Below, one piece after another: positions 19,714 through 22,285 of a stretch of 64,000 bases of DNA; the stretch's first letter is position 1, and every line of letters begins with the position of its first letter. Made by a program: the position numbers and the translations under genes. The stretch comes from Listeria grayi DSM 20601 (lineage in GTDB: Bacteria; Bacillota; Bacilli; Lactobacillales; Listeriaceae): assembly GCF_000148995.1 (NCBI RefSeq), contig NZ_GL538352.1:1033149-1097148 (forward strand), read 5' to 3'. The notes under the pieces are model-generated. The model did no database searches and had not been told where the DNA came from. It saw nothing but the letters and a program-made list of their open reading frames with translations.

Positions 19714-20109
19714 TTATTCAGAAATGATTTCTACACTTTCCGTAATTTCGATGCTACCTTCTACAGAACGTGCCATGGAACAATGTTTCGGTACTAATTT
19801 CAATGCCTTGTCTAAACTAGTTGCATCAAGATCTGTTCCTGTTATTTTAAAATGGATATGGACAGCAGATATCCGGTTTGCTTCTTCCGGTACTTTTTCA
19901 GCCGTTGCCTCTAGCCATAGATCCGTATACGCCATTCTTTTTTTGCTTAGAATATTCCGGAATACGAGCGCACTGCATCCTGCTAAAGAAGCGATCATTA
20001 GATCGGATGGGCTGTGTCCATTGCCCTTATTATCAATAATAATGGTTTCTGCTGGAAGTTCTGTTTCAAAACCTTGTTCGGTCAACTTAATTTTTAATGG
20101 TTCACTCAT
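19714..20109 (-). CDS. OsmC/Ohr family peroxiredoxin-like protein
   Basis: This 131-residue protein has the OsmC-like pattern of two conserved cysteines: one in LAGCSALVF after SPSDLMIASL, the other in VPKHCSMARSV. OsmC/Ohr proteins reduce organic hydroperoxides with this Cys pair. The variant here is closer to the YhfA-like OsmC branch, whose substrate is less certain. It lies upstream of rlmD on the same strand. The long plus-strand frame across it is a shadow. Confidence 0.8.
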   Translation of the reverse strand: MSEPLKIKLTEQGFETELPAETIIIDNKGNGHSPSDLMIASLAGCSALVFRNILSKKRMAYTDLWLEATAEKVPEEANRISAVHIHFKITGTDLDATSLDKALKLVPKHCSMARSVEGSIEITESVEIISE

Positions 20110-20157: not shown

Positions 20158-20173
20158 GCACTATTTTAGCCCA
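20158..20173 (+). repeat. Left attachment-site repeat
   Basis: GCACTATTTTAGCCCA is identical to 21598-21613, with 1440 bases between starts. It is interpreted as one half-site left by site-specific integration. Confidence 0.75.
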
Positions 20174-20292
20174 GAAGATATTGATATTATTTAAGTAAGC
20201 CTAGCAGAAACAAAAAGTCTTATATATCAACGTTTTATACATTAATAAATAGAGTCTTCAAAATCTATATAAATCTAATCAAATACTATTAT

Positions 20293-20311
20293 TAGGGGCA
20301 AACTAGGGGCA
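20293..20311 (+). repeat. Left pair of TAGGGGCA arm-type repeats
   Basis: TAGGGGCA occurs at 20293-20300 and 20304-20311 in the same orientation, 11 bases apart. The same octamer is paired at the right end. The rest of 20174-20361 is AT-rich and I see no gene in it. Confidence 0.6.
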
Positions 20312-20361
20312 TGAATGAAATTAAGACCTTTACAATTTTCAAAGTAGGGGTCTTTTAAATA

Positions 20362-20391
20362 TAAAAACCCCGCCGAAGCGAGGTGCTTATA
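20362..20391 (-). terminator. Terminator after the immunity gene
   Basis: On the minus strand the hairpin ACCTCGC/ttcg/GCGGGGT (one mismatch) is followed by TTTTTATA. It is a phage-style UUCG-loop terminator, just past the stop of the 82-residue gene. Confidence 0.85.
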
Positions 20392-20401
20392 TAATGTGAT
20401 C

Positions 20402-20650
20402 CTATAAAATCGTTTCAACTTCTATATCATTATTTGCAAGCAGCTCTATCCACGGTTTACCATCGATTTTGCTCTCCATAATTAGTTTATAATAATTTTT
20501 TTCAGGCCCTACTTCCCAGCCATCATCTTTGCAAAAATAAAATCCTTCTTTAGCATGCAGGAAGATATATTTATCATCATTATAACTGAATTCGATTTCA
20601 CGTCCCGAATCAATAGCATCCAATAGTTCTTGATAGTCTTTTATATTCAT
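20402..20650 (-). CDS. Small acidic protein, probable immunity partner
   Basis: This 82-residue soluble protein is not recognised as a named family. It is clearly acidic (NNDIEVETIL tail, YNDDKY, CKDDGWEVGPEK), the opposite of its very basic neighbour. It starts 20 bases after the toxin-like gene on the same strand, with AAAAGGAGA before the ATG at 20650, and is followed by a terminator. Order (toxin then partner), small size and acidity fit a cytosolic immunity protein. This is inference from context. The longer frame to 20707 overlaps the toxin gene and lacks an SD. Confidence 0.65.
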   Translation of the reverse strand: MNIKDYQELLDAIDSGREIEFSYNDDKYIFLHAKEGFYFCKDDGWEVGPEKNYYKLIMESKIDGKPWIELLANNDIEVETIL

Positions 20651-20670
20651 AATTAATCTTCTCCTTTTAT

Positions 20671-21252
20671 TTAATGCCCTTCTCTTTTCATTTTTCCATT
20701 TTTCCATGTTATTTTGTGTCTGTGTGGAAACTTAACTGTTTTTTTCAAACTTTTAGACAGAGCATGAAAGTAATCAATGTCTAATTCTGCTTTTCCGTTT
20801 TTCCCGTAATATCTCCGTTGTTTTACTTTACCATCGACAATTAAGTCTTTTGAAGAATATTTTTTACCAGTTTTTGGCAAATTACTATCGCCTTTTTTAC
20901 TTACTTTCTTAGAATTATTCCCCTTAACCTTTTTACCTTTTTTCTTAGCTGACTTGTATTTTTGAGCTTTAGTTTTTTTCTTCTTCTTCTTTTTCTTTTT
21001 GCTCTTCTTCTTGCCTTTTTTACCTTTGTTTGATTTTGGCTTAGGCTTAGGTTTCGGAGTTGGCTTTGTATAACCTCCACCCGATGCAGGTGCTCGTCCT
21101 ACTCCACCACCCGGCGAAGGTGGGCTACTGTCTGTTTGATTTGCTGCTAGGGTAGCAGTTTGTTCTTTTGCTATTGCTGCTGTCGCTGGTACACTTACAG
21201 AAAATAACATTAAACTAGCTGCTAATATGTACATTAGATGCTTTAATTTCAT
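20671..21252 (-). CDS. Secreted Lys-rich protein with C-terminal toxin-like domain
   Basis: This is a 193-residue protein. Residues 1-28 are a Sec signal peptide (MKLKHLMYILAASLMLFSVS...ATA). A Gly/Pro-rich linker follows, then (about 62-120) an extreme Lys tract with nine consecutive lysines. The last 70 residues form a compact domain: QRRYYGKNGKAELDIDYFH (145-163) and FPHRHKITW (175-183), with Arg, Asp and His residues that could form a nuclease-like active site. From memory this resembles C-terminal domains of polymorphic toxins and phage head proteins (possibly the type 24 polymorphic toxin domain). LPKTG at 125-129 is internal and is not a sorting signal. AGGAG precedes the ATG. No LXG or WXG domain is present. 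Confidence 0.7.
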   Translation of the reverse strand: MKLKHLMYILAASLMLFSVSVPATAAIAKEQTATLAANQTDSSPPSPGGGVGRAPASGGGYTKPTPKPKPKPKSNKGKKGKKKSKKKKKKKKKTKAQKYKSAKKKGKKVKGNNSKKVSKKGDSNLPKTGKKYSSKDLIVDGKVKQRRYYGKNGKAELDIDYFHALSKSLKKTVKFPHRHKITWKNGKMKREGH

Positions 21253-21407
21253 TCTCTCACACTCCTATTTATTTTCAAACATTTATTTTACTTGATTTAC
21301 TGATGAATGTCTGCGGAGATTTTGTGACAATTTGGAATGAAATGTGTCGTTTTATTGTGTAAGTATGTAATTTCTTTGATCGTCCAGTCATTATTATCTA
21401 CTAAAAG

Positions 21408-21505
21408 GATCAAGAACAACACGGGTTTATAGCCATGCTGATGATAAACTTAATAAAGACACACTTAGCAAATATACAGCGTATAAAAGTGTAAAAGGAC
21501 TCTGA
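21408..21505 (+). pseudogene. Tyrosine integrase C-terminal remnant
   Basis: Read in frame to the TGA at 21503-21505, the DNA encodes TTRVYSHADDKLNKDTLSKY followed by TAYKSVKGL. This looks like the extreme C-terminus of a phage-type tyrosine recombinase, with the nucleophilic Tyr in VYSH. Upstream of about 21408 no matching integrase frame can be followed, so only about 30 codons survive. It ends 8 bases before the arm-type repeats, the usual position of int relative to att. Confidence 0.6.
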
Positions 21506-21513
21506 ATATCTTT

Positions 21514-21533
21514 TAGGGGCACGGCTAGGGGCA
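21514..21533 (+). repeat. Right pair of TAGGGGCA arm-type repeats
   Basis: TAGGGGCA occurs at 21514-21521 and 21526-21533, in the same orientation as the left pair. It lies between the integrase remnant and the right attachment repeat. Confidence 0.6.
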
Positions 21534-21597
21534 AAACAGCAATATAGCGTTTTACAAGTCCCCTACCGTTGATAAATAGCAATTTCTTTAAAAAATA

Positions 21598-21613
21598 GCA
21601 CTATTTTAGCCCA
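21598..21613 (+). repeat. Right attachment-site repeat
   Basis: GCACTATTTTAGCCCA is identical to 20158-20173. It abuts the promoter region of the downstream nucleoside kinase gene. Confidence 0.75.
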
Positions 21614-21661
21614 AAATGTACTATAGTAGTAACGGAGGGGTCCAAATTGAAAGGAGACGAC

Positions 21662-22285
21662 ATGAGTGTGATTGTACTTGCAGGAATGATAGGTGCTGGT
21701 AAAAGCAGCTATACGGAATTATTGGCTAGTAGCTTAGAAAGCAAGGCTTTTTATGAAGAGATCCAAGATAATGCCTTGCTGGAGAAATTTTATGAGGATC
21801 CAAAGCGATGGGCTTTTGCTTTGCAGATCTATTTTTTAAATACTCGTTTTCGCAGTATCAAAGCTGCACTAACGGATAAACATAATGTGTTGGATCGCAG
21901 TATTTATGAGGATGCGTTATTTACACAGATCAATTATGAGAATGGCAATATGTCTAAAGCGGAGATGGCTACATACCTAGATCTGCTCAGTAATATGATG
22001 GAAGAACTTGACGGCATGCCGAAAAAAGCGCCGGATCTGCTTATTTATCTGCGTGGTAGTTTGGACACGGTACTTACCCGGATCAAAAAACGTGGACGTT
22101 CCTATGAACAGATTCAGGAGCACCCGGAATTATTTGCATATTACAAACAGCTCCACAGTAGATATGATGACTGGTTTGCTTCATATGATAAAAGTCCGAC
22201 GCTGCTTATCCCGATCGATGAGATCGATATATCTGATCCGGCTGATGCGGAAAAAGTAATCGCGCTGGTAAAAAAACATTTATAA
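21662..22285 (+). CDS. Deoxynucleoside kinase (dAdo/dGuo/dCyd kinase family)
   Basis: This 207-residue kinase belongs to the Bacillus Dck/Dgk type. It has P-loop GMIGAGKSS, the DRS motif in VLDRSIYEDALF that contacts the nucleoside and Mg, and the Arg-rich lid RIKKRGRSYEQ. It phosphorylates deoxynucleosides for salvage; which base it prefers is not clear. The ATG at 21662 has AAAGGAG 6 bases before it. The gene begins 48 bases after the right repeat of the integrative element, so the insertion lies in its promoter region. Confidence 0.87.
   Translation: MSVIVLAGMIGAGKSSYTELLASSLESKAFYEEIQDNALLEKFYEDPKRWAFALQIYFLNTRFRSIKAALTDKHNVLDRSIYEDALFTQINYENGNMSKAEMATYLDLLSNMMEELDGMPKKAPDLLIYLRGSLDTVLTRIKKRGRSYEQIQEHPELFAYYKQLHSRYDDWFASYDKSPTLLIPIDEIDISDPADAEKVIALVKKHL

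What the first reader, a model, noticed from the sequence alone, without database searches (positions are those of the whole stretch)
20158..21613. Deletion-derived or non-autonomous integrative element carrying a toxin/immunity pair
Seen directly: perfect 16-bp direct repeats (GCACTATTTTAGCCCA) 1440 bases apart, each accompanied inside by two same-orientation TAGGGGCA octamers, plus a 30-codon frame ending in an integrase-like VYSHADDK tail 8 bases before the right octamers. Tyrosine-integrase elements normally place int, arm sites and att in this order. Between the ends only a secreted basic protein and an acidic partner remain. The simplest reading is that a phage or ICE integrated here and collapsed by internal deletion, keeping its toxin/immunity cargo. 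Alternatively it is a mini-element mobilised in trans by a related integrase.
Basis: partly seen in the sequence, partly recalled or inferred. Interest (0 to 1): 0.85.

Follow-up and report, generated by a model that had tools for sequence, protein, structure and literature searches.

The report
Collapsed prophage keeping a toxin–immunity pair
A phage that once inserted in this Listeria chromosome has shrunk to 1.4 kb, keeping little more than its two ends, the last tenth of its integrase gene, and a secreted bacterial toxin gene with its protective partner; the same thing has happened to other phages in this genome and in related species.

Summary
The 16-bp repeats occur only here in the genome, and the TAGGGGCA pairs lie inside both of them. 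In at least 13 other Listeria genomes the same two neighbouring genes sit about 1,443 bp closer together, which is an empty site. The 32-codon frame is a true integrase C-terminus. It matches 399–419-aa integrases in other Listeriaceae, one of them in an intact-looking prophage, and several have the same paired octamers right after the int stop codon. The cargo is a secreted Lys-rich protein with an Ntox24-like polymorphic-toxin domain, followed by its phrog_3711 partner. The same two-gene pairing occurs on MuF, LXG/WXG and phage-moron carriers. This genome also carries the cargo in a larger prophage ruin at groEL, in another collapsed one at tsf, and in two decayed copies. Six tail-only integrase remnants occur in Listeriaceae, one pair in tandem with other secreted-protein cargo. 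Best reading: a temperate phage, not an ICE, deleted down to its attachment ends plus a retained toxin/immunity moron, resembling a CIME. Mobilisation in trans is untested.

The parts
20158..20173 (+). left attachment core (16-bp direct repeat)
20293..20311 (+). left pair of TAGGGGCA arm-type octamers
   Evidence: decayed copy of this region in the paralogous locus L047
20322..20358 (-). hairpin and T-run between left arms and cargo (terminator-like; the hairpin is also present in L047)
   Evidence: sequence
20402..20650 (-). 82-aa acidic immunity protein (phrog_3711-related)
   Evidence: E=2e-7; alignments A2/A4; AF2 pLDDT 93
20671..21252 (-). 193-aa secreted basic protein: signal peptide, Pro/Lys-rich linker, Ntox24-like C-terminal domain (20674-20904)
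21253..21371 (-). upstream region of the toxin gene, conserved with the groEL-site copy L045; homology ends at 21371
21372..21406 (.). inferred internal-deletion junction (cargo-side homology ends at 21371, integrase homology starts at 21407)
21407..21505 (+). integrase 3' end: last 32 codons plus stop
21514..21533 (+). right pair of TAGGGGCA arm-type octamers, 8 nt after the int stop codon
21598..21613 (+). right attachment core (16-bp direct repeat), in the promoter region of the kinase gene
19714..20109 (-). chromosomal flank: OsmC-like gene
21662..22285 (+). chromosomal flank: deoxynucleoside-kinase-like gene

Best explanation
A temperate phage using a tyrosine integrase (arm sites TAGGGGCA, core GCACTATTTTAGCCCA) integrated between the OsmC-like gene and the deoxynucleoside kinase gene. 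An internal deletion then removed everything from just upstream of the toxin promoter to the last 32 codons of int. What remains is attL, arm pair, immunity, toxin, int tail, arm pair, attR. The pair was lysogenic-conversion (moron) cargo: a secreted polymorphic toxin with an Ntox24-like domain that probably acts on bacterial competitors, plus a cytoplasmic immunity protein protecting the producer. The pair is kept by selection, either because it harms competitors or because loss of the immunity gene exposes the cell to siblings' toxin, while the rest of the phage is discarded. Shown: the ends, the integrase tail, the empty site in relatives, the cargo pairing and the purifying pattern. Inferred: the phage (not ICE) origin, the single-deletion event, secretion, toxicity and the reason for retention.
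For: Unique 16-bp repeats with inner arm pairs. Empty site: gap 1,443-1,444 bp shorter in relatives. Integrase tail homologous to intact integrases that also have octamer pairs just after their stop: G012 TTAGGGGTA x2, G081 TTAGGGGCG/TTAGGGGCA, and (a frame-shifted int) G243, where the int stop TAG is the TAG of TAGGGGCA. The G012 integrase lies beside HTH regulators and DnaD-like replication genes. A sister locus in the same genome, at groEL, has the same order with more phage left: arms, two imm genes, toxin, lysin, holin..., full int, arms, and 76-bp att repeats. Toxin/immunity pairing beside the integrase in Paenibacillus phage Willow, and with a MuF capsid protein in Clostridioides phage phiCDKH02. 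Toxin dN/dS between the window and L045 is 0.16 overall and 0.08 in the C-terminal domain.
Against: No structural phage gene is left inside the 1.4 kb, so its phage origin rests on relatives. The empty site is seen only in other species, at about 70% identity, where the 16-mer itself is not conserved. The window toxin lacks two histidines that are nearly invariant in homologs, so its activity cannot be assumed. dN/dS between paralogs may mostly reflect time before the collapse.
Confidence: 0.8

Rival explanations
1. A non-autonomous mini-element (CIME-like cassette) that keeps attL, attR and arm sites under selection and is still moved in trans or in cis by a related integrase supplied by another phage.
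For: Six tail-only remnants in five Listeriaceae genomes keep just the last 31-67 codons of int, most with arm sites. In G011 two such units lie in tandem, one with arm repeats at both ends around a secreted protein plus acidic partner, the same layout as here. Arm and core repeats in the window are still perfect.
Against: Deletion endpoints differ between units, so they look like separate collapses rather than one spreading cassette. No second copy with the same core exists in the genome, and no intact integrase of this clade is left there. No identical element was found elsewhere.
Confidence: 0.15
2. A collapsed integrative conjugative element rather than a phage.
For: Tyrosine integrases with paired arm sites next to the int stop codon also occur in ICEs (general knowledge).
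Against: The closest intact relative sits with cI-like and DnaD-like phage genes, and the sister cargo locus has lysin and holin. The same pair is a moron in Paenibacillus phages.
Confidence: 0.04
3. Chance repeats around ordinary chromosomal genes (no mobile element).
For: Octamer pairs alone are common: in viral contigs none of the 80 fetched hits lay beside an integrase, and the AGGGGYA pair has a similar background of reversed-pattern hits.
Against: Repeats, arms, int tail and empty site agree to within a few bases of one another.
Confidence: 0.01

Closest known systems
Cryptic ('grounded') prophage remnant carrying a moron (PMC6379469)
   Same: att-bounded, integrase destroyed, cargo kept
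   Different: Extreme reduction to 1.44 kb; the same cargo survives in several ruins with different integrases in one genome
CIME, cis-mobilizable element (PMC5704250)
   Same: Lost integration genes but retains attL and attR; tandem accretion is seen at related sites (G011; groEL site of this genome)
   Different: CIMEs are defined as decayed ICEs/IMEs; this one is phage-derived, and mobilisation is not shown
MuF polymorphic toxins of temperate phages (PMC5576092)
   Same: Same toxin domain and same immunity family in a temperate-phage context (phiCDKH02)
   Different: Here the domain is on a short secreted Lys-rich protein, not on a capsid protein
Ntox24 polymorphic toxin domain, PF15529 (PMC3482391)
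   Same: All-beta prediction, conserved Y and His residues, carriers MuF/LXG/WXG/RHS
   Different: The window copy itself does not reach the Pfam model; its partner matches phrog_3711 and gave no hit to Imm50 or Imm53, the partners named in the 2012 paper
Paenibacillus larvae phage Willow/Fern gp26-gp27
   Same: Toxin domain plus imm homolog between lysin and integrase
   Different: 676-aa PT-TG toxin in a complete phage

Membership tests
Cryptic prophage remnant | att core duplicated at both ends | tested here: met
Cryptic prophage remnant | recognisable integrase (here a remnant) | tested here: met
Cryptic prophage remnant | unoccupied site in relatives | tested here: met
   (other species only; same-species strains not available)
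Cryptic prophage remnant | phage structural, lysis or regulatory genes inside (present in many remnants, not required of the most reduced ones) | tested here: inconclusive
   none in 20158-21613; present in the sister locus L045 and beside the related int in G012. Phage origin is inferred from these relatives.
CIME (cis-mobilizable element) | attL and attR kept, integration and transfer genes lost | tested here: met
CIME (cis-mobilizable element) | derived from an ICE/IME | tested here: not met
   relatives are phage-like
CIME (cis-mobilizable element) | mobilised by an accreted or related element | not testable with these tools
   needs an excision/transfer assay
Polymorphic toxin system | modular C-terminal toxin domain shared across carrier proteins | tested here: met
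   MuF and PT-TG carriers by Pfam/NCBIfam, LXG/WXG and RHS by eye
Polymorphic toxin system | immunity gene directly downstream | tested here: met
Polymorphic toxin system | toxicity neutralised by the partner | not testable with these tools
   bench test
Ntox24 (PF15529) | match of the Pfam model | tested here: inconclusive
   9 of 29 homologs match (best E 1e-4), the window copy does not
MuF toxin | N-terminal MuF domain | tested here: not met
   secreted linker instead
Phage satellite (PICI-like) | own integrase and regulators | tested here: not met
   no such genes

The most novel reading that the evidence does not exclude
A class of phage-derived minimal cassettes in Listeriaceae: two arm/att ends, the int 3' end, and one secreted toxin-immunity pair with its own promoter. 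They would persist and accrete in tandem at a few sites, mobilised in trans by full-length integrases of the same clade, as a phage counterpart of CIMEs dedicated to swapping competition toxins.
Probability: 0.15. Interest if true: 0.7.

Novelty: new member of a known kind. Interest (0 to 1): 0.45.

Why it matters
It shows prophage decay stopping at the toxin–immunity cargo, several times in one genome and with different integrases. That is a clean natural experiment for asking what a host keeps from its phages and why. The intact related integrases in other Listeria make the trans-mobilisation question directly testable. It also links a short secreted Listeria protein family to a polymorphic-toxin domain and immunity family used by MuF, T7SS (LXG) and RHS toxins.

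Tried and rejected
TAGGGGCA pairs as a general integrase signature: a scan of viral contigs gave many hits, none beside an integrase in the 80 fetched, so the motif is informative only within this integrase clade. Searching the 32-aa tail in phages: no hit; DNA search of the element in phages and plasmids: nothing useful. The full G012 integrase in phage records and viral contigs: no relative found. Arms in G011/G017 as the same att core as the window: rejected; their site is a genus-wide motif next to the DUF423 gene. PDB sequence and fold searches for toxin and immunity: no significant match, so no catalytic mechanism could be read off. 'Listeria phage LM 4-11-1' immunity hit as phage evidence: rejected, the stretch read is chromosomal and holds an LXG locus.

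Full report
The observation. The 16-bp direct repeat GCACTATTTTAGCCCA lies at 20158 and 21598 and nowhere else in the genome, even with two mismatches. It is one of two perfect 16-mer repeat families with copies 100-3000 bp apart in the 64-kb window, and such repeats arise in under 1% of shuffled 3-kb windows. The four TAGGGGCA octamers (20293, 20304, 21514, 21526) are all the window has, and the paired form occurs only at these two places in the genome. The 32-codon frame at 21407-21505 ends 8 bases before the right octamers.

Empty site. DNA search of related genomes finds the two flanking genes, but not the segment, in many Listeria species. At least 13 genomes gave matches to both flanks. 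Read from the match coordinates, their interval is 1,443-1,444 bp shorter than here, against 1,440 bp for one element plus one repeat. The 16-mer itself is not conserved in those species, so the empty site is shown at genus level only.

The integrase tail. Searching 398 genomes of the order with the 32-aa tail gives hits that sit at the C-termini of full-length frames (G012 419 aa, E 8e-6; G016 411 aa) and in short remnants in G011 (two), G017, G230 and G081. Aligned, they read GSxxTxVYxHADDxxxKxxIxxY. The octamers follow the stop codon in the clade: G012 has TTAGGGGTA twice, G081 has TTAGGGGCG and TTAGGGGCA, and in G243 the stop codon TAG is itself the TAG of the first TAGGGGCA. The G012 integrase has HTH regulators upstream and a DnaD-like replication region beyond them, i.e. 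a prophage (gene names by eye). So int, arm and att order is real, and the source is a phage lineage.

The cargo. The 193-aa protein has a signal peptide (by eye), a Pro/Lys-rich linker and a C-terminal domain. Sister copies of that domain match phrog_18811 ('toxin') and phrog_21033, and the partner matches phrog_3711. The domain occurs at the C-terminus of Paenibacillus phage toxin gp26 with an imm homolog as gp27, between the lysin genes and the integrase, and of a MuF minor capsid protein in a Clostridioides phage with an imm homolog downstream. It also occurs on LXG/WXG-, RHS- and MuF-like carriers in Firmicutes, many of the MuF, LXG/WXG and secreted ones with the phrog_3711-type gene directly downstream (carriers named by eye from N-termini except where Pfam was run). 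Nine of 29 homologs match Pfam Ntox24, described as all-beta with Y, H, H and found with MuF and LXG/WXG carriers; the AF2 model of the window domain is all-beta. The window copy keeps R30, R31, Y33, G37, D42, D44 and PHxH but lacks two nearly invariant histidines. Toxin dN/dS against the L045 copy is 0.16 overall and 0.08 in the C-terminal domain.

Sister ruins in the same genome. (1) L045, at the 3' end of groEL: a 7.5-kb prophage fragment with a full integrase of another type, holin and lysin genes, toxin and two imm genes, bounded by 76-bp att repeats, with paired GTGGGCA/GTGGGTA repeats at both ends. A third att copy beyond it encloses an orphan imm gene, a second collapsed unit in tandem. 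(2) L046, between a nucleotidase gene and tsf: toxin, imm, a stop-interrupted integrase C-terminus of a third type and paired GTTCCCA repeats. (3) L047 and (4) L048: decayed toxin/imm fragments; L047 keeps a degenerate copy of the window's left arm and hairpin region. The order (arm, imm, toxin..., int, arm) is shared by the window and L045, so the window is the same plan with the middle removed; homology to L045 stops at 21371 and integrase homology starts at 21407.

Sister ruins in other genomes. All six tail-only remnants of this integrase clade keep only its last 31-67 residues. In G011 two lie in tandem; the second has arm repeats at both ends (88% identical) around a secreted protein and an acidic partner with different sequences from those here. 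G011, G017 and this genome's L047 share one insertion site, a motif present once in most Listeria.

Judgement. The mini-element reading stays open: perfect ends and recurring arm-plus-cargo units favour it, while varied deletion endpoints and the lack of a resident integrase of this clade argue against current mobility. The feature works like a cryptic prophage retaining a moron and resembles a CIME. It is not filed as a CIME because that term denotes decayed ICEs/IMEs.

Limits. Toxicity, secretion and excision are inferred. The species name was not tested. Some carrier types and neighbouring genes were assigned by eye.

Noticed in passing
L284:6900-10830 (G011:C1:290.9-294.8 kb): Two integrase-tail remnants in tandem plus a third arm repeat; the second unit is flanked by arm repeats and carries a secreted protein with an acidic partner. 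Looks like site-specific accretion of collapsed elements.
   Followed up: partly
L045:12671-13287 (G000 C2, near groEL): A third att repeat beyond the prophage fragment encloses an orphan immunity gene with its own decayed arm region: a second collapsed unit reduced to immunity alone.
   Followed up: partly
L047:5975-6035; G011, G017: A motif (AAAGGGAGTTTAAGGTAAGAAA...), present once in most Listeria genomes, adjoins integrase-tail remnants next to the DUF423 gene: a genus-wide insertion hotspot, nature of the motif unknown (no Rfam match).
   Followed up: partly
window:20155-20160 and 21595-21624: By eye, the core sits in the kinase promoter: the rejoined site would read TTGGCA-18 nt-TACTAT, while in the occupied state the -35-like hexamer is ATAGCA. 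Insertion may weaken this promoter.
   Followed up: no
L173 (OR846728.1, 'Listeria phage LM 4-11-1'): The deposited phage contig holds chromosomal genes (transketolase, transaldolase by eye) and an LXG locus with an orphan immunity gene, so it is at least partly bacterial.
   Followed up: partly
L282 (G012:C5): The intact prophage with the related integrase is inserted directly beside what look like cas1/cas2 genes (named by eye).
   Followed up: no
L271, L272 (G022, G019): Other Listeria species carry short secreted versions of the same toxin plus immunity (160-168 aa), near a recombinase gene or conjugation-like genes.
   Followed up: partly
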